64,000 bases of DNA from Halomicrobium zhouii (lineage in GTDB: Archaea > Halobacteriota > Halobacteria > Halobacteriales > Haloarculaceae), in contig NZ_FOZK01000005.1 of NCBI RefSeq assembly GCF_900114435.1, positions 124,001-188,000 on the forward strand, in the 5' to 3' direction. The position numbers were made by a program, and so were the translations under genes. The notes under the pieces are model-generated. The model made no database searches, had not been told where the DNA came from, and worked only from the letters and a program-made list of their open reading frames with translations. Shown piece after piece: positions 2 through 61,754 of the stretch. Every line of letters starts with the position of its first letter. Position 1 is the stretch's first letter.

Positions 2-3000
2 GACTGGAGCGAGACGTTCGAACGGATGCTGGGGCTCGAACCGGGCACCTTCGAGGGGACCTACGACGACTTCGAACGGCGGGTTCACCCGGACGACGTG
101 TCACGAATCGACGCGGCGGTTGACCGGGCGCTCGAGAACGACGAACTGTTTCTGACGGAGTTCAGGCTCCGCCACGAGGACGGACGGTGGATCTGGGTCA
201 ACGCTCGTGGTTGGGTCGTCGTCGACGAGGAGGGCCACCGGCGGATGGTCGGGATCAACCACGACATCACCGAACGCAAGGAACGAGAACAGCAGTTACA
301 GCGCTACAAGGAGTACACCGACGACATCCTCGACGCGCTCGACGACGTGTTCTACGTGCTCGACTCGAACGGCAACCTCCAGCGGTGGAACGAGAGCATG
401 AGCGAGGTGACCGGCTACACGGACGACGAGCTGCGGGGGAAGCAGGCGCTGGAGTTCTTCTCGGAGCAGGACGTGGAAGCCGTCTCCGCCGCGATCGAGG
501 AGGTGTTCGAGACGGGAAACACCCGCATCGAAGTAGAGGCCCTGACCAAAGACGGACGGTCGATACCCTACGAGCTCGTCGCTGCCAGGCTGGAAGACCC
601 CGAGGGAAACCAGGTACTGGCCGGCATCGGGCGGGACGTCAGCGAGCGCAGGCGCCTCGAGCAGGACCTTCGGACCGAGAAGGAACACTTTCGCGTGGCC
701 CTCGAGAACTCCCCCCTCGTCGCGTTCAGGCAAGATACCGACCTCCGCTACACGTGGGTCGGCAACCCGCAACGTGACTTCAGGGACCACGAGGTGATCG
801 GGAAGCGTGACGACGAAATATTCCCGCCCCAGTCGGCGGAAACGCTCACGGAGATCAAACGGAGCGCGCTCGAGACCGGTGACGCCGTGCGCGAGGAGGT
901 GACGTACGAACTCCCCTCCGGCGAGGAGGTGACGTACGACCTCACGGTCGAACCGTTCCGGAACGAGTCCGGGGAGATCGTCGGCCTGACCATCGCTGCC
1001 CTGGACATAACTGAACGCAGGGAACGGGAGGCGGAGATCGAACGGACCACGGACCTCCTCGAACAGGCGGGACGGATCGCCCGCATCGGCGGGTGGGAAC
1101 TCGACCTCACCACCGACCCGCCCGAGATGACGTGGACCGACGAACTGTACGACATCCACGGCGTCGAACCCGGGACGCCGGTCGACGTCGAGACGGTCGT
1201 CGACCGCTATCACCCCGAGGACCGGGAGTACATCGAGAACCGGCTCGAGGCGGCCATCGAGCGGGGCGAGAGCTACGACATGGAGGTCCGGATCCAGTCC
1301 GGCTCGGACCAGCACCGCTGGGTGCGCGCGCTGGGCGAGGCCGTCTCCGAGGACGGCGAGGTCGTCAAACTCCGCGGCTCGATACAGGACATCACCGAAC
1401 AGAAAGAGCGCGAAGCGGAACTGCGGGCGACCAAGAACCGGATGCAGAAGTTCATCGAGACGTCACCGGTCGGCGTCGTCGGGACGACCCCGGAGGGCAT
1501 CGTCACGCTCTGGAACGACGCGATGGAGCAGATATTCGGGTGGTCCGCCGAGGAGGTGCTGGGAGAGCCGTACCCGGCGATCTCCGACGGCGACGACGAC
1601 CCGGACCCGGTCCGCCAGCGTGTCCTCGACGGCGAGGCCATCTCGCAGGTCGAACTCGAACGGGTGACGAAAGACGGCGAGCAGATCGACGTCTCGCTGT
1701 CGACGGGACCGGTGTACGACGCGGCGGGGGACATCAGCGAGGTCGTGGGGTACATCGAGGACATCACCGAACGAAAGGAGCGCGAGCGCGAACTGCAGGA
1801 GACGAACGAACGGCTCAACGCCGTCATCGACGCCTCGCCGGACGCCATCGTCGCCCTCGACACGGACGGGACCGTCACGCTGTGGAACCCGGCGGCCGAG
1901 CGAATCTTCGGCTGGCGCGAAGACGAGATACTCGGCGAACCGATGCCCATCGTCCCGCCGGAGCGGGCCGAGGAACACGCAGACATCCTGCGTCGTCTCG
2001 CCGACGGCGAGACGGTCCGGGGCGCCGAAGTCCTCCGCCAGACCAGGGACGGGGAGCGCATCGAGCTGAGTCTCTCCGCCGCGCCGCTGCGCGACGCCGA
2101 CGGCACCATCGTCGGCAATCTCGGTGTCAGCGAGGACATCTCGAGGCGCAAGGAGCGCCAGCGGGAACTCGAACGGACGAAGGACATGCTCGCCCAGGCC
2201 CAGCAACTCGCCGCGGTCGGCGGGTGGGAACTCGACCTGGCGGGCGACGAGCCGGTCCTCGAGTGGACCGACGAACTGTATCGCATTCACGGCCTCCCGC
2301 CAGGGGCGGACGTGACTCTCGACGAGGCTCTCGACTTCTACCACACCGAGGACAGGCCCCGCATTCGCGACGCCATCGATCGCGTCGTCGAGACGGGCGG
2401 TACTTACGACGAGGAGACCCGGTTTTACGCCGCGGACGGCGAGCAGCGGTGGGTCAGGGCCATCGGTAAGGCGATCCAGCAAGACGGGGAGACCGTCAAG
2501 CTCCGCGGGGCGTTCCAGGATATCACCAGACAGAAGGAGCGCGAACTGGCCCTGCAATCGCTCCACGACGCCACGAGGGGCCTGCTCCACACCGAGTCCG
2601 AGACGGAGGTCGCCGAACTGGTCGTCGAGACGGCGGCGGAGCTGTTCGACGTCTCGGGCGTCGCCGTCTACACCATCGACGACGCCTCGAACCGGCTCGT
2701 CCCGGCGGCCTACACGGACGCGTTCGATGCGCTCTCCGACGGGGCCCCCTCGGTCGGCGTCGGCGACGACGCGGCCGTGTGGAACTGCTTCGCGACGGGA
2801 GAGCGAGTGGTGTTCGACGACGCCGAGACCGCCCGCCAGTCGCGGGTGTTCGGCGAGTCCGTCGACGGCGGCCTGCTCGTCCCGATGGGCGACCACGGCG
2901 TGTTCGTCGTGGCGACCGACGGCCCCCGCATCGACGACGACACCCGGCGGCTAGCCGAGACGCTCGTGGCGACGACGGAGGCAGCCTTCGACCGCCTGGC

Positions 3001-4267
3001 CAGCGAGGCCGACCTCCGGAAGCGCGACGAGGAACTCGAGGCCCAGAACCGGCGGCTCCGCCGGCAGATCCAGATCAACGACATCATCCGCCGGGTCGAC
3101 CAGTCGCTCGTCGGCGCGACCAGCCGCGAGGAGGTGGAGTCGGCCGTCTGCGACCGCCTCGTCGAGTCCGACGACGTCGCCTTCGCCTGGATCGGCGGGT
3201 TCGACGGTGACGGCGACGAACTCGTCCCCCGGGCGTGGGCGGGGCCCGGCCAGACCTACCTCGACACGCTCGCGCTGGACGACCTGAAAGACTCGACCGA
3301 GCCGTCGCTGGCGACCGCCCGCTCCGGGGAGGCGACGGTCGTCGGCAACGTCGTCGACCGGTTGCGCGAGGACGCCTGGCGCCGGGGAGCGCTGGCCAAC
3401 GACTTCCACTCGGTGATCAGCGTCCCGCTGGCCGTCGACGAGTACAGCCACGGCGCCCTCACCGTCTACGCCGGCGAGCCGGACACCTTCGGCGACCTCG
3501 AACGGACGGTGTTCGCCGAACTCGGCCGGTCCATCGCCAACGCCATCAACGCCGTCTCGGCCCGCGAAGCGCTCCACGCAGACACCGTCGTCGAGCTGAC
3601 GCTCCGGTTCGACGACCCGAACGGCGTGCTGTCGCGGGTCGCCCGCGACGCCGACTGCGACGTCGAGTACGAGGGCATCTCGACCCGGTCGGCCGACGAG
3701 ACCCGGCTGTTCTTCGCCACCACCGGCGCGGCCGCCGACGCCGTCGCCGACGTCCTCGAGGGCCTCTACGCGGTGACGGAGTGCCGACTCGTGAGCGAGA
3801 GCGACGACGGCCGGTGCCTGTTCGAAGTCACCGTCACCGGGACGGTCCTCCCGTCGGCGCTGGTCGACCAGGGCGCCTCCCCGCGCTCCATCCGCGCCAC
3901 GCCGATTGGGACGGAAGTCGTCGTCGACCTGCCGACGTCGACGGACGTCCGCGAGTTCGTCGAGACCCTCGGCGAGGAGTTCCCCTCCGTCGAACTCGCC
4001 GGCCGGCGCAACGTCGAGCGCGGCATGGGGACTCGCCAGCAACTGCTCTCCTCGCTACTGGGCGAGTTGACCGACCGACAGCTGGAGGTGCTGCGGACGG
4101 CCTACTTCGCCGGCTTCTTCGAGTGGCCCCGCCAGAGCACCGGCGAGGAGGTGGCCGAGATGCTCGACGTCACCCAGCCGACGGTGAACCGGCACCTCCG
4201 CCTGGGCCAGCAGCGGCTGCTCGCGCAGCTGTTCGACGAAGAAGCGCCGGACCTGGTGGCGGCGTAG
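2..4267 (+). CDS. Multi-PAS/GAF sensor regulator with bacterio-opsin-activator HTH (5' partial)
   Basis: The reading frame is open to the left edge and already encodes PAS sequence there, so the true start lies outside; the ATG at 26 is internal. Domains by nucleotide position: a partial PAS to ~285, then PAS repeats at ~305-650, 680-1015, 1055-1395, 1440-1780, 1810-2140 and 2190-2545, each followed by the PAC-type ending DIT(E/R)..KERE. GAF domains follow at ~2565-2990 and ~3085-3560, a Bat-type domain at ~3585-4010, and a HTH_10 segment at ~4060-4215 beginning LTDRQLEVL. No histidine kinase H-box or ATPase motifs are visible. By family knowledge such proteins are cytoplasmic one-component transcription regulators that read redox, light or small ligands through PAS/GAF modules. 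The specific signal is unknown. PAS4 and PAS7 resemble each other closely (both GGWELDL), suggesting internal duplication. Confidence 0.93.
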   Translation, partial: DWSETFERMLGLEPGTFEGTYDDFERRVHPDDVSRIDAAVDRALENDELFLTEFRLRHEDGRWIWVNARGWVVVDEEGHRRMVGINHDITERKEREQQLQRYKEYTDDILDALDDVFYVLDSNGNLQRWNESMSEVTGYTDDELRGKQALEFFSEQDVEAVSAAIEEVFETGNTRIEVEALTKDGRSIPYELVAARLEDPEGNQVLAGIGRDVSERRRLEQDLRTEKEHFRVALENSPLVAFRQDTDLRYTWVGNPQRDFRDHEVIGKRDDEIFPPQSAETLTEIKRSALETGDAVREEVTYELPSGEEVTYDLTVEPFRNESGEIVGLTIAALDITERREREAEIERTTDLLEQAGRIARIGGWELDLTTDPPEMTWTDELYDIHGVEPGTPVDVETVVDRYHPEDREYIENRLEAAIERGESYDMEVRIQSGSDQHRWVRALGEAVSEDGEVVKLRGSIQDITEQKEREAELRATKNRMQKFIETSPVGVVGTTPEGIVTLWNDAMEQIFGWSAEEVLGEPYPAISDGDDDPDPVRQRVLDGEAISQVELERVTKDGEQIDVSLSTGPVYDAAGDISEVVGYIEDITERKERERELQETNERLNAVIDASPDAIVALDTDGTVTLWNPAAERIFGWREDEILGEPMPIVPPERAEEHADILRRLADGETVRGAEVLRQTRDGERIELSLSAAPLRDADGTIVGNLGVSEDISRRKERQRELERTKDMLAQAQQLAAVGGWELDLAGDEPVLEWTDELYRIHGLPPGADVTLDEALDFYHTEDRPRIRDAIDRVVETGGTYDEETRFYAADGEQRWVRAIGKAIQQDGETVKLRGAFQDITRQKERELALQSLHDATRGLLHTESETEVAELVVETAAELFDVSGVAVYTIDDASNRLVPAAYTDAFDALSDGAPSVGVGDDAAVWNCFATGERVVFDDAETARQSRVFGESVDGGLLVPMGDHGVFVVATDGPRIDDDTRRLAETLVATTEAAFDRLASEADLRKRDEELEAQNRRLRRQIQINDIIRRVDQSLVGATSREEVESAVCDRLVESDDVAFAWIGGFDGDGDELVPRAWAGPGQTYLDTLALDDLKDSTEPSLATARSGEATVVGNVVDRLREDAWRRGALANDFHSVISVPLAVDEYSHGALTVYAGEPDTFGDLERTVFAELGRSIANAINAVSAREALHADTVVELTLRFDDPNGVLSRVARDADCDVEYEGISTRSADETRLFFATTGAAADAVADVLEGLYAVTECRLVSESDDGRCLFEVTVTGTVLPSALVDQGASPRSIRATPIGTEVVVDLPTSTDVREFVETLGEEFPSVELAGRRNVERGMGTRQQLLSSLLGELTDRQLEVLRTAYFAGFFEWPRQSTGEEVAEMLDVTQPTVNRHLRLGQQRLLAQLFDEEAPDLVAA

Positions 4268-4720: not shown

Positions 4721-8610
<3,890 letters not shown>

Positions 8611-21288: not shown

Positions 21289-22491
21289 TCACGCTATCGG
21301 GGTGAACCGGAAGACCAGAAACGCGGCGACCGTCGCGACCATCGGGACGATGTTCTGGAGCAGGATGATCCGGGCGGTGGCCTCGGGTTCGAACAGGTCC
21401 GAGGACCGGGGAATGTCCTCGCGTGCTTCGTCGCCGATGGGCGCTCGTTTGCCCGGCGTCGGCGTCGACTTGCCGCCGCCGACGGTCGGCGCGTCCTCGG
21501 CGTCGGCCTTGAGCGCGCCGGGTGAGGCGCCGGGCACCTCGCCGCGGACCGTCTGGGAGAGCTTCGTGGTCCGCGTCGCCCGTCCCCAGCCGAGGCCGAC
21601 GATGCTCATCGTGGCGATGATGACGAAACTCGCCGGGACGCCCAGCGCCGAGAGGAACGTGACGATGGTGGAACTGACGACAGCGACGAGCAGCGCAGCC
21701 AGCAGCGGCAGGTCGGTCAGGTCGTTGCCGACGGTGTCCATCGTCCGGCGGGCGATGGTGAACGCGCCCAGCCCGATGGCCCCGCCGCCCAGCAGGATGG
21801 CCGGCGTCATCTCTAGCGATTCGTTACCCACCAGCGGCGCGACCGCGTTGGCGATGTTCGAGGCTCCCGCCGAGAACGCCATGTAACAGCCGATGCCGAC
21901 GACGAGGACGGTCCCGACGAACTCCCGCCGGTTCGTGTTCTCGCCGAGCACGGGCCGCGGGACGGTACCCGACCGGTCGAGTACGACCAGCGACCCCTCG
22001 GACTGGGGGATGGCGAACCGCTCGACCAGCGCGGGGTAGAAGTAGCGGCCGACGACGCCGCTGACCCAGAACGCCAGGATGGGAGAGACGAGCCACCAGG
22101 CGACGATGCGCCCCATCTGGTCCCAGTTCAGCGTGCCCTGGGCGATGCCGAGTCCGGCCATCGCGCCCACGGCAGTCATCGACGTGGAGGCCGGGACTCC
22201 GATGATGTTCGAGAGGAACAGCGCGAAGCCGATGAAGAACAGCACGACGATGCTGACGACCATCGTGAACTCCGAGTCGACGAGGCCGCTTCCCAGGGTG
22301 TCGACGACTTCGCGACCGACGAAGTGACCGCCGGCGAGCGCGAACACAGTCATCAGCGCGGCGGCGCCGAACTTCGACACCGTGCCGGCGCCCACCGCGG
22401 GCCCGAAGGCGACGCCCGTCGACGATCCGCCGATGTTGAACCCGACGAACACGGCGACGAGAAGGCCGAACAGGAAGAGGACCTCGACCAT
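21289..22491 (-). CDS. PiT-family inorganic phosphate (anion) permease, copy 1
   Basis: This 400-residue membrane protein has ~10 helices and two inverted PiT repeats: FNIGGSSTGVAFGPAVG near the N-terminus and SAGASNIANAVAPLVG in the second half (~205). A hydrophilic segment rich in Gly, Pro and Glu (residues ~315-370) precedes the final helix. By family it couples phosphate uptake to Na+ or H+; the exact anion is not proved. A second paralogue of very similar layout lies 580 bases upstream on the same strand, with a small membrane gene between them. Confidence 0.9.
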   Translation of the reverse strand: MVEVLFLFGLLVAVFVGFNIGGSSTGVAFGPAVGAGTVSKFGAAALMTVFALAGGHFVGREVVDTLGSGLVDSEFTMVVSIVVLFFIGFALFLSNIIGVPASTSMTAVGAMAGLGIAQGTLNWDQMGRIVAWWLVSPILAFWVSGVVGRYFYPALVERFAIPQSEGSLVVLDRSGTVPRPVLGENTNRREFVGTVLVVGIGCYMAFSAGASNIANAVAPLVGNESLEMTPAILLGGGAIGLGAFTIARRTMDTVGNDLTDLPLLAALLVAVVSSTIVTFLSALGVPASFVIIATMSIVGLGWGRATRTTKLSQTVRGEVPGASPGALKADAEDAPTVGGGKSTPTPGKRAPIGDEAREDIPRSSDLFEPEATARIILLQNIVPMVATVAAFLVFRFTPIA

Positions 22492-22639
22492 ACCGATCGG
22501 TGGACGACCGGCGGTTAAAGGCTACCGACAGCGGACTCGGCGAGGTTGCAGTCCGGCACGAGCGGTCGAGAGTCCGGTACGAGCGAGCGAGAGTCCGGAG
22601 CGACGGCGGGATGGAAGGGACGCCGACGGCTGGCGGCGG

Positions 22640-23066: not shown

Positions 23067-24236
23067 TCAGAAGACTGGGAGGTACTCGAAGACGAGGAAC
23101 GACGCCGTCGCGGCGATGGTCGGGGTGAGAATCCACAGCATCACGACCCGGCCGGTCGCGTCCGGGTCGAACAGGTCGGCCGCACTGGCGACGTCGCCCG
23201 GGTCCTCCTCGCCGATCGGTGCGACGTCTCTGGTGCCGCCGTTGGCGGTGGCGTCGGTGCCGTCGTCCGCCGCGATGGCGTTGACGGAGACGCCGCCCCC
23301 GTCACCGCTCCCCACGGTCGCTTTCCCGGTGACGGCGGCCCCCGCGGCGTCGGCGAGGCGCGTCGTCCGCGTGGCCCGGCCCCAGCCGAGGCCGACGATA
23401 CACATCGTCGCGGAGACGGCCAGGCTCGCCGGGATGCCGATCTGGGAGAGCCCGGTGATGATGCTCGCGCTCACGATCTCGACGATGAGCGACGCCAGTA
23501 TCGGGAGCTGCGTGAGGCCGCTGCCCACCGTGTCCAGCGTCCGGCGAGCGATGGTGAACGCACCGAGGCCGATGGCCGCACCGGCGAGCGCGACCCCCGG
23601 GTAGAGGCCGAGGTCGCCGCTCCCGACCAGCGGGGCGACGGCGTTGGCGACGTTCGACGCGCCGGCCGCGAACGCCATGTAACAGGCGATGAGGACGACG
23701 AGTATCCCGCCGACCCGCTCGCGCATCGTCTTCTCCTCCCCCGGCGATTCGATCGCGAACCGGGCTTCGAGGTGGGGATAGAGGTAGCGGCCGATCATCG
23801 CACACACCCAGAACGCGGTGATGGGCGCGACGAGCCACCAGGTGACGATCTGGCCCATCACCTCCCAGTCGATGGTGCCCGAGGCGACGCCGAGGCCGGC
23901 GATGGCGCCGACGGCGGTCATCGACGTGGAGGCGGGGACGCCGAAGAGGTTCGAGATCAGCAGCGCGAGGCCGACGAAGAAGAGGACCGTGACGCTGGCC
24001 GCCAGGGTGAACTCGGCCTGGGGGACGATGTCGCCGCCCATCGTCTCGATGACGCGCGTGCCCACGGTCGCCCCGCCCAGCAGCGCGAACCCGGTCATCA
24101 GGCCCGCGGCGGCCGTCTTCGAGATGATACCGCTCCCGACCGCGGGCCCGAAGGCGACGCCCGTCGACGACCCGCCGATGTTGAAGCCGACGAACACGGC
24201 GACGAGGAGACCGACGACGAGAAGAACCTCGACCAT
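23067..24236 (-). CDS. PiT-family inorganic phosphate (anion) permease, copy 2
   Basis: This 389-residue membrane protein begins MVEVLLVVGLLVAVFVGFNIGG, nearly the same N-terminus as copy 1 at 21289, and keeps FNIGGSSTGVAFGPAVG and AAGASNVANAVAPLVG. A hydrophilic insert (residues ~300-355, containing VGSGDGGGVSVN) is less similar to copy 1. The two genes are clear paralogues in the same orientation, so tandem duplication with divergence is likely. Same predicted role: Na+- or H+-coupled anion uptake. It is preceded by the membrane-anchored coiled-coil gene, 80 bases away. Confidence 0.9.
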   Translation of the reverse strand: MVEVLLVVGLLVAVFVGFNIGGSSTGVAFGPAVGSGIISKTAAAGLMTGFALLGGATVGTRVIETMGGDIVPQAEFTLAASVTVLFFVGLALLISNLFGVPASTSMTAVGAIAGLGVASGTIDWEVMGQIVTWWLVAPITAFWVCAMIGRYLYPHLEARFAIESPGEEKTMRERVGGILVVLIACYMAFAAGASNVANAVAPLVGSGDLGLYPGVALAGAAIGLGAFTIARRTLDTVGSGLTQLPILASLIVEIVSASIITGLSQIGIPASLAVSATMCIVGLGWGRATRTTRLADAAGAAVTGKATVGSGDGGGVSVNAIAADDGTDATANGGTRDVAPIGEEDPGDVASAADLFDPDATGRVVMLWILTPTIAATASFLVFEYLPVF

Positions 24237-24317
24237 ACACGGGCAACGCCGTGGCTCGGTTAAATGGTGTCGACATCCGGAGAAATTGTACGGGTCGGTG
24301 GGCCTCGGCGGGGCCGC

Positions 24318-25084: not shown

Positions 25085-25250
25085 CAAGAAGGGCCGACCC
25101 TTGCAATACTGCTCGACGGTCAATCCACGGGACGGGACTGAAAGGGGCCGGTCGCTGGGGGGAAGCACGACGAAGTAAGCACGCGAGCGCAAGCGAGCGC
25201 GCACAGCGAGTCGTGCGACTCCAGCGACCGGGGGCTTTCGTGCTGTTCTT
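25085..25250. repeat. Structured intergenic repeat, short copy A (upstream of hisA)
   Basis: It contains the family signature GACTGAAAGGGG (25135-25147), AAGTAAGCAC, CAGCGAG and GGGCTTTCG (25231-25240). The stem CCGGTCGCTGG (25148-25158) pairs with CCAGCGACCGG (25221-25231), and an inner stem GCACGAC (25165-25171) pairs with GTCGTGC (25210-25216). The outer arms are degenerate (GTTCCAACAAGAGCAAGAAGG-like versus the complement of CTTTCGTGCTGTTCTTGGTAAC). No protein is encoded. It ends ~85 bases before hisA. Confidence 0.7.
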
Positions 25251-27827: not shown

Positions 27828-28466
27828 ACCGCAAACACTTCGAAAGCCCTCGGCGGGCTCCAGTCCCGGGGCTCGTTGCGCTCCTCGCTGCGCTCCGGTG
27901 CTTACTGCGCCCGGGTTCCCGGAGCGGACGGTCGGCTCCGCCGACCGTCGCATGAGCTGGCGGCTACGCCGCCAGCCGCCCCTCGCCCTTTCAGTCCACC
28001 GGAAGACTCACTCTGTTCGTCTTCCGAGCCCTGCTTCGCTTCGCTCAGCAGGACACCAGGCACAGCACCGCAGCCTGCCCTTCCCCTGGTCGCGGCATGA
28101 AAGCCGCTCCCGGCCGGGCGGTTGCGGGGCGGTCAGGAAGCGTGTCGCGCCGCGAGGGTGGCGCGTCAGCGCCACCTCACCGCGAACGGCGCCAGCCGTG
28201 AGCAAGGCGCGACCGGGGAGGTTTGGCGGCATCAATCGCGAGCGCAGGAAGGCGCCGAGCAGAGCGAGGGGCCTTCGGATGAGCGAACGGCGAGCGAAGC
28301 GAGCCGTGAGCGCGTGCCGAAGGCCGCGCGAGCAAGGCTGGTCCTGGCGGATGAAAGGGCGAGGCTCGGTCGGGGAAGCCGGGACTCTCAAGCACCGCAA
28401 CGGAGTGAGGAGCGCAGAGTGGTCCCCGCGACCCGAGCGGGCCGAGGGCTTTCCTCTGTTCGCGGT
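27828..28466. repeat. Structured intergenic repeat, long composite copy B (upstream of hisB)
   Basis: This 639-base element has terminal inverted repeats: ACCGCAAACA...CGAAAGCCCTCGGC on the left mirrors GCCGAGGGCTTTC...TTCGCGGT on the right. The left arm (27828-28000) and right arm (~28341-28466) are inverted versions of the same unit as copies A and D. The core between them contains blocks shared with copy C: CTGCCCTTCCCCTGGTCGC, CTCCCGGCC, GGTCAGGA, CGGGGAGGTTT and TCAATCGCGAGCGC. Hairpins include GCGGC/GCCGC (28092-28107) and GTCGCGCC/GGCGCGAC (28144-28151 with 28206-28213). Frames inside it are not protein-like. It ends ~117 bases before hisB. Confidence 0.8.
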
Positions 28467-34289: not shown

Positions 34290-34777
34290 AACAGCAAGAC
34301 GTCGAAAGCCCTCGGCGGGCTCGACTCGCGCGCCACAGTCTGCGCTCCTCGCTGCGCTCCGGTGCTTGACGTGGCGTGCTTCGTCGACCCCGCCTCGCCC
34401 TTTCAGTCCACCAGGTCAGCACCGCTCCTGCCCTTCCCCTGGTCGCGCGTCCCTCGCGTCTGCTCGGGGACGCGCTCCCGGCCAAGCGGTTGCGGAGCGG
34501 TCAGGATGCGTGATTCGCGCCAGACGGCGCGAATCCGGGGAGGTTTTGGTGTCTTGGCGAGCGAAGCGAGCCAAGGCTCGTCAGAGCTCGCTCTGACGGT
34601 GGAGTCAATCGCGAGCGCGTGGCGAACGACGTGAGGCCGCGCGAGCGACGCAGTTCCTGGAGGAATGAAAGGGCGAGGGGCGGTCGGCGATGCCGGACGA
34701 AGTAAGCACCGGAACGAAGTGAGGAGCGCAGCGAGTCCCGTGAGTCGAGCGCGCCGAGGGCTTTCAAGATGTTGCTG
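34290..34777. repeat. Structured intergenic repeat, long composite copy C (upstream of upp)
   Basis: These 488 bases are flanked by inverted arms: AACAGCAAGACGTCGAAAGCCCT on the left matches the complement of the right end AGGGCTTTCAAGATGTTGCTG. The core shares blocks with copy B in the same order. Hairpins differ in sequence but sit at the same places: GCGCGTCCC/GGGACGCGC (34445-34453 with 34467-34475) where B has GCGGC/GCCGC, and GATTCGCGCC/GGCGCGAATC (34512-34521 with 34526-34535) where B has GTCGCGCC/GGCGCGAC. A third hairpin CGTCAGAGC/GCTCTGACG lies near 34579-34598. It has no protein-like frame. Confidence 0.8.
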
Positions 34778-34865
34778 TCCCCAATCGCGTCTACAATTCG
34801 AATCCACCAAATCGCTCAGTACACATCCTCTACTGATCACGCGAACACACGTCCCCAATCCCCAC

Positions 34866-61588: not shown

Positions 61589-61754
61589 GCAAACAACTCG
61601 AAAGCCCCACCCACGCCGGTTGATCAGCCGCTGTGGGCGGGACTGAAAGGGGCGGCTGGCTGACCGAACCCCGGCGAAGCAAGCACCGCAGGCGAAGCCG
61701 AGGAGCGCAGCGAGCCGCGGGAGGTCAGCCAGCCGGGGCTTTCGAGTTGTTTGC
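61589..61754. repeat. Structured intergenic repeat, short copy D (between epimerase and ahcY)
   Basis: This 166-base element is bounded by a perfect 20-base inverted repeat: GCAAACAACTCGAAAGCCCC (61589-61608) and its complement at 61735-61754. The interior has the family motifs GACTGAAAGGGGC, GAAGCAAGCACCGC, GAGGAGCGCAGCGAG. A perfect 12-base stem GGCTGGCTGACC (61654-61665) with GGTCAGCCAGCC (61723-61734) abuts the right arm. Another small hairpin CCCAC/GTGGG lies near 61608-61638. No coding capacity. Confidence 0.8.

What the first reader, a model, noticed from the sequence alone, without database searches (positions are those of the whole stretch)
61589..61754. Copy D: a 166-base element closed by a perfect 20-base inverted repeat and a 12-base inner stem
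The terminal arms (61589-61608 and 61735-61754) are perfect complements, and GGCTGGCTGACC/GGTCAGCCAGCC adjoins the right arm. The same place in copy A holds a different, also perfect, stem (CCGGTCGCTGG/CCAGCGACCGG). This copy looks like the minimal unit from which the long ones are built as inverted pairs. It could be a non-autonomous insertion (MITE-like) or an RNA.
Basis: seen in the sequence. Interest (0 to 1): 0.62.

Follow-up and report, generated by a model that had tools for sequence, protein, structure and literature searches.

The report
Swapping, flipping hairpin repeats in haloarchaea
The 166-base element is a damaged, one-armed copy of a non-coding repeat found more than a hundred times between genes in this salt-loving archaeon; the repeats stay at fixed sites, while their hairpins seem to be swapped between sites and flipped in place, behaviour that I did not find described for this family.

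Summary
The host is a haloarchaeon. A full element is two ~105-nt hairpin arms in inverted orientation around a small centre hairpin, closed by an outer inverted repeat. D keeps the outer stem, centre and right arm. A relative with ~92% identical flanks (HArc-gm2) has the complete two-armed element at the same site, and at the site of copy A, so both window copies lack a left hairpin that the relative keeps.

The genome holds at least 149 arms at 106 sites, none inside a called gene (99 scored). The family is common in Halobacteriales (55 of 77 genomes) and was not found in 85 other genomes of the phylum. Stems vary greatly but stay complementary (97% of cells paired; 0 of 500 shuffles).

Sites are inherited vertically (63 orthologous pairs), but arms are not: 75 of 88 resemble an unlinked copy in their own genome more than any arm at the orthologous site, and 8 of 27 two-armed elements align better inverted.

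Best reading: an old, now largely immobile MITE/BIME-like repeat whose hairpins are exchanged between loci by ectopic recombination and flipped in place. Recent transposition is not supported. An RNA role is not excluded.

The parts
61589..61608 (+). Copy D: left half of the outer stem, the only remnant of the left arm
   Evidence: Perfect complement of 61735-61754; in the relative the intact left arm follows here
61610..61637 (.). Copy D: centre palindrome CCCAC...TTGATCAG...GTGGG
   Evidence: Read; folds as a hairpin; the relative has the matching centre CCCACCCGTGCCGGTCGATCAGCCACTGTGGGCGGG
61640..61743 (+). Copy D: right arm (type 1 hairpin), GGACTGAAAGGGGC...GGGGCTTTC
   Evidence: Covariance model match 108.3 bits, E 1.2e-21 (G000:C5:185640-185743)
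61654..61665 (+). Copy D: 5' side of the hypervariable stem
61723..61734 (+). Copy D: 3' side of the hypervariable stem
61735..61754 (+). Copy D: right half of the outer stem
25135..25239 (+). Copy A: right arm (type 1); left arm absent here but present at the orthologous site of the relative
27843..27942 (-). Copy B: left arm (type 2)
   Evidence: 63.4 bits
28348..28453 (+). Copy B: right arm (type 2)
   Evidence: 82 bits
34304..34409 (-). Copy C: left arm (type 2)
   Evidence: 85.6 bits
34662..34765 (+). Copy C: right arm (type 2)
   Evidence: 94.5 bits

Best explanation
Copy D is a one-armed derivative of an old, haloarchaea-wide family of non-coding intergenic repeats. The full unit is two ~105-bp hairpin arms in inverted orientation around a centre hairpin, so one strand can fold into a cloverleaf or cruciform. 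Shown here: sites are inherited vertically; stems vary greatly yet stay self-complementary; near-identical arms sit at unlinked sites while arms at orthologous sites are little more alike than random family members; cores are found flipped in place between two sister species; one arm is often missing. Inferred: extruded hairpins are nicked or broken (Mre11-Rad50 or Hjc-type enzymes) and repair copies an arm from another dispersed copy without crossover. Such ectopic gene conversion would replace a hairpin as a unit and so keep it self-complementary. Recombination or strand switching between the inverted arms would flip the core, and slippage across a hairpin would delete one arm, as in D and A. 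How the family first spread is unknown; old MITE-like transposition is the likeliest guess.
For: 149 arms at 106 sites, 41 of them as divergent '-+' pairs against one '++' and one '+-'. Intact two-armed element at the orthologous sites of D and A in G006/HArc-gm2, with D joined through a short CCC microhomology. 63 elements pair with orthologous sites. Best arm at the orthologous site: median identity 0.829; best unlinked paralog 0.915; equally many random paralogs 0.784; 75 of 88 arms closer to a paralog, 11 closer to the orthologous site. 21 of 78 stems identical to an unlinked paralog, 1 identical to its ortholog. 57 pairs of unlinked arms at least 95% identical, with outer 70 nt only 0.68 identical (random 0.60). 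8 of 27 two-armed elements align better inverted; centre identity forward/inverted 0.69/0.97 and 0.57/0.94 with collinear outer flanks; the opposite-orientation arm is the better match in 27 of 50. Covariation 0.522 against 0.146 shuffled. No element inside a called ORF among 99, all gene orientations represented.
Against: No repair or recombination gene was tested; the conversion mechanism is inference. Two genomes were compared in depth, so direction of change is not polarised by an outgroup. Best-of-148 paralog search favours paralogs; the random control (0.784) and the identical unlinked arms answer this only in part. Intergenic orthologous identity next to the elements is itself only ~0.77-0.80, so part of the arm divergence is ordinary drift. 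The G006 list stops at 150 arms. The G-T excess in stems hints at selection on one strand, which conversion alone does not predict.
Confidence: 0.6

Rival explanations
1. A dedicated site-specific recombination system acts on the arms: an enzyme recognises the arm ends or the folded arm, inverts the core and exchanges hairpin cassettes between loci, like a genome-wide shufflon.
For: Orientation near equilibrium (27 of 50); very conserved arm borders GGACTGAAAGGG and GGGCTTTC and an invariant T-A pair inside an otherwise hypervariable stem; near-identical arms with dissimilar flanks.
Against: No recombinase is linked to the elements; the OB-fold gene seen beside some arms has an arm at only 2 of 8 unselected loci. 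Synteny of ~180 kb is kept between the two species, although crossovers among so many sites should scramble it.
Confidence: 0.13
2. The arm is a functional structured RNA (or a processing or termination signal) transcribed outward from the centre; pairing is kept by selection on the RNA.
For: Strand-specific wobble: G-T 21 against A-C 6 in type 1 and 99 against 17 in type 2 distinct stems; conserved internal-loop and apical sequence with covarying helices.
Against: No Rfam match even at E up to 1. Elements lie between convergent, tandem and divergent genes alike (27/48/24), not at fixed positions relative to genes. Wobble pairs are still rare and shared ancestry inflates the counts. Some genomes of the same family have none.
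Confidence: 0.12
3. Recently active MITE or IS200/IS605-derived PATE: arms move by a transposase in trans, and identical unlinked arms are recent insertions.
For: Dispersed, 100+ copies, terminal and subterminal palindromes, near-identical copies at unlinked loci; PATEs and small mobile repeats are known from Haloquadratum (PMC3119063).
Against: Orthologous sites are occupied in the sister species (C5/C18 comparison); no clean empty site was found; no target duplication seen; near-identical arms sit inside older, locus-specific elements.
Confidence: 0.1
4. Stems are kept complementary only by mutation: quasipalindrome template switching copies one side of a stem onto the other at each site.
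For: Both sides change together (295 cells), as template switching would give.
Against: It does not explain near-identical arms, loop included, at unlinked loci or core inversion. Imperfect inner parts of the hairpin are not made perfect.
Confidence: 0.05

Closest known systems
Small mobile repeats type A (SMR-A) and 'SwitchRepeats' of Haloquadratum walsbyi (Dyall-Smith et al. 2011, PMC3119063)
   Same: About 110 bp, inverted terminal repeats, no target duplication, many copies; [quoted passage not shown]
   Different: Sequence identity not testable here (supplements not readable, genome not identified among handles). SMR-A insert into PATE palindromes and show strain-specific insertions; here the arms form fixed inverted pairs and sites are shared.
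[quoted passage not shown]
   Same: Short, non-coding, dispersed, long inverted repeats, intergenic.
   Different: No target duplication, empty site or parent transposase was found; arms rather than whole elements are exchanged.
PATEs / IS200-IS605 derived elements
   Same: Near-terminal palindromes, no target duplication, haloarchaeal.
   Different: PATEs lack terminal inverted repeats (PMC3119063); these elements are inverted pairs. No TnpA/TnpB association was established.
REP / BIME elements of bacteria
   Same: High-copy extragenic palindromes arranged as inverted pairs.
   Different: Arms are ~105 nt against 20-40 nt for a REP (PMC3733652 abstract), stems vary fully between copies, no REP-associated tyrosine transposase tested.
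Integron attC sites (from general knowledge, not tested)
   Same: Hairpins kept by structure while the stem sequence varies.
   Different: No integron integrase, gene cassettes or attC core sites were looked for or seen.

Membership tests
MITE | Inverted repeats at both ends of a short non-coding element | tested here: met
   Arm pairs in inverted orientation, 41 '-+' pairs; type-1 outer ends share GATCAACACAGTAGTT on both sides
MITE | Target site duplication | tested here: inconclusive
   None seen by eye at three full type-1 copies, but the exact element ends are not defined
MITE | Empty sites in relatives (mobility) | tested here: not met
   Sites shared with G006; apparent differences were deletions or replacements
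MITE | Parent transposase with matching ends | not tested
   No coding sequence between arms in this genome (largest gap 405 nt); no search for transposases with these ends was made
PATE (IS200/IS605 derived) | No terminal inverted repeats, near-terminal palindromes | tested here: not met
   The element is an inverted pair with a 20-nt perfect outer stem in D
PATE (IS200/IS605 derived) | Ends similar to an IS605-type transposon | not tested
   No IS605 end comparison was run
SMR-A of Haloquadratum | Sequence similarity to HqIRS42/43/55 | not testable with these tools
SMR-A of Haloquadratum | ~110 bp with inverted terminal repeats and no target duplication | tested here: inconclusive
   Arms ~105 nt with GAAAG/CTTTC ends; independent mobility of single arms not shown
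REP/BIME | High-copy extragenic palindromes in alternating orientation | tested here: met
   149 arms, none inside ORFs in 99 scored elements
REP/BIME | Associated tyrosine transposase (RAYT) | not tested
   No RAYT search was run
Known RNA family (Rfam 15) | Match to a curated covariance model | tested here: not met
   No match over copies A-D or at E up to 1 over three loci
Invertible DNA segment | Same segment in both orientations at one site | tested here: met
   8 of 27 two-armed orthologs align better inverted; centre 0.69 forward against 0.97 inverted
Invertible DNA segment | Dedicated invertase | not tested
   No recombinase search was run

The most novel reading that the evidence does not exclude
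Halobacteriales carry a genome-wide network of invertible, interchangeable hairpin cassettes that is driven by a dedicated recombination system acting on folded single-stranded DNA, so that more than a hundred intergenic sites per genome continually flip and trade hairpins while staying in place.
Probability: 0.13. Interest if true: 0.85.

Novelty: new variant of a known kind. Interest (0 to 1): 0.5.

Why it matters
If hairpins really are exchanged between more than a hundred fixed sites, they are a natural recorder of ectopic recombination in polyploid archaea, and one that does not scramble gene order. The family also gives a clear warning: perfect covariation across copies can come from whole-hairpin exchange and need not mean a functional RNA. 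Flipping of 250-550 bp segments between genes could change the surroundings of nearby promoters and is easy to test by PCR.

Tried and rejected
Rfam searches gave only a tRNA in the window, nothing on three loci at E up to 1, and no match at the arms of four further loci. Phage records: no match; viral contigs: one exact pattern hit. Clean empty sites were sought in the 180-kb syntenic stretch and not found: the site at C5:202.5k is a collapsed remnant, C5:194k and copy C differ by replacement with other sequence, and C18:110.8k faces a 3.3-kb unrelated stretch. A plasmid module (OB-fold gene plus ~400 bp conserved intergenic DNA) beside many plasmid arms looked like a partner gene, but among 8 loci chosen by the gene alone only 2 have an arm nearby, so it is kept as a lead only. 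A terminator or leader role was considered and dropped because elements occur between convergent, tandem and divergent genes. Comparing arm divergence (0.81) with gene flanks (0.92) first suggested hypermutable stems, but intergenic DNA next to the elements is also only 0.77-0.80 identical, so that claim was dropped. Left and right arms of one element are not more alike than random arms (0.77 against 0.80), so exchange within an element is not the main route. Five literature searches beyond the Haloquadratum paper found no description of this family.

Full report
Observation. The strand folds far better than shuffled sequence (z -8.4 as RNA, -7.1 as DNA). The window is haloarchaeal: its closest named match at ahcY is 'Halobacteria archaeon HArc-gm2' with 97% protein identity. 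Copy D lies in the intergenic stretch between a minus-strand NAD-epimerase-like gene and a plus-strand adenosylhomocysteinase-like gene (names from the sequence and neighbourhood).

Anatomy. D has three parts: an outer stem (61589-61608 with 61735-61754), a centre palindrome (61610-61637) and one hairpin arm (61640-61743). Arms start with GGACTGAAAGGG and end with GGGCTTTC. Inside is a ~12-bp stem that differs from copy to copy, a second covarying helix, a conserved AAGCACC...GAGGAGCGCAG internal part and a small apical hairpin. Two types exist: type 1 (GGGGC...GGGGCTTTC, centre ~27-60 nt) and type 2 (GGGCGA...GAGGGCTTTC, centre ~170-400 nt). On 60 arms 97.3% of cells form standard pairs against 75.7% in shuffles, with 295 both-side changes against 92 (0 of 500 shuffles reach it), and slid pairings fall to 29-50%. 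One T-A pair within the variable stem is invariant in the 60 arms.

D is not the minimal unit. The orthologous site in G006 (the same locus as HArc-gm2, L060/L059) holds a left arm, the same kind of centre and the right arm; D's sequence runs from GAAAGCCCC straight into ACCCAC, consistent with deletion of the left hairpin through a short C-run. Copy A shows the same: two arms in the relative, one here. An outgroup at these sites was not available, so loss rather than gain is inferred from the retained left terminal 20 nt and from the family anatomy. Copies B and C in the window are two-armed type 2 elements.

Family size and spread. A covariance model from the 60 arms finds 149 arms in this genome (output cap 150), forming 106 sites: 41 '-+' pairs, 63 single arms, one '++', one '+-'. 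Of 77 relatives 55 have at least one arm, with copy numbers from one to more than 50, and some genera none. In a sample of the phylum, 14 of 15 Halobacteriales genomes and 0 of 85 others match. Plasmids of many haloarchaea carry one or two; phage records carry none.

Context. Of 99 scored elements none lies inside a called ORF; 27 lie between convergent, 48 between tandem and 24 between divergent genes (ORF calling by a simple codon score of my own). This argues against a fixed role as terminator or leader.

Sites are old. On the one contig compared without selection (C5 against C18, ~180 kb) nearly all sites are occupied in both, and the exceptions are deletions or replacements.

Arms are exchanged. 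For 88 arms the best arm at the orthologous place, in either orientation, has median identity 0.829; the best unlinked arm in the same genome 0.915; equally many random arms 0.784. 75 arms are closer to a paralog and 11 to the orthologous place. Stems show it best: 21 of 78 are identical to an unlinked stem and 1 to its ortholog. 57 pairs of unlinked arms are at least 95% identical, three of them 100%, while the adjacent outer 70 nt average 0.68 (random 0.60) and the centre side 0.73 (random 0.61). So the hairpin behaves as the exchanged piece. A caution: intergenic identity near the elements is only 0.77-0.80, so part of the divergence of orthologous arms is ordinary; the near-identical unlinked arms carry the argument.

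Cores flip. Of 27 two-armed orthologous elements 8 align better inverted, including all four short type-1 elements tested. At C1:1300284 the centre is 0.69 identical forward and 0.97 inverted, at C2:593511 0.57 and 0.94, while the outer flanks stay collinear. Where both orientations exist, the opposite arm is the better match in 27 of 50.

Mechanism. The simplest account that fits is breakage of extruded hairpins followed by repair from another copy without crossover, which would replace whole hairpins, keep them self-complementary and leave gene order intact. Flipping would follow from recombination or strand switching between the inverted arms. None of these steps was observed directly. Left and right arms of one element are, if anything, less alike than random arms (0.77 against 0.80 for type 2, 0.69 against 0.72 for type 1), which fits instability of perfect long palindromes.

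RNA or DNA. Stems tolerate G-T more than A-C when read on the arm's plus strand: 21 to 6 and 99 to 17, an asymmetry that a double-stranded cruciform alone would not give. Apical loops are often C(GNA)G (95 of 205 triloops against 143 of 5947 in the contig; crude parse), a motif known from general knowledge to be very stable in single-stranded DNA and also found in RNA. Shared ancestry inflates both counts. I take them as a hint that one strand in folded form matters, without deciding between RNA and single-stranded DNA.

Comparison with the known. [quoted passage not shown] That is the closest published behaviour; whether the sequences are related could not be tested. PATEs are excluded as a class by the terminal inverted repeats. 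MITE or BIME is the nearest general class by anatomy, but mobility was not shown.

Verdict.

Noticed in passing
L157, L158, L160-L163 around 2590-4110; own genome C2:808891-810276 and C2:339479-340848 (L172, L283): A ~288-aa OB-fold (Ssb-like, weak Pfam) gene with a conserved ~400-bp structured upstream region has an arm ~480-550 bp from its start in many haloarchaeal plasmids and twice in this genome; among 8 loci chosen by the gene alone only 2 have the arm.
   Followed up: partly
G000:C5:202521-202590 against G006:C18:53239-53741: A full element in the relative is reduced here to a ~60-bp hairpin remnant, another internal deletion at a shared site.
   Followed up: yes
window 34291-34778 against G006:C18:97964-98468: Where copy C lies, the relative has unrelated sequence of similar length; by eye it may hold a short zinc-ribbon gene, not checked.
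   Followed up: no
L003, L005, L032, L033 and similar arms: Some arms carry extra nested hairpins in the apical part (arms of 150-220 nt), as if small palindromes inserted into the loop.
   Followed up: no
window 4736-5461 and 6790-7452; 21565-22493 and 23361-24238: Two pairs of long direct repeats (70-79% identity), probably duplicated genes.
   Followed up: no
L163 5999-6194 (-): Near-threshold Rfam match to sot2652 (59.6 bits, cut-off 61) overlapping the 3' side of a transposase gene on a Natrinema plasmid.
   Followed up: no
L155 4970-5050 (-): One arm in a predicted viral contig (IMGVR_UViG_2931652883_000002) found by exact pattern; the covariance model gave no match there at E 0.01.
   Followed up: partly
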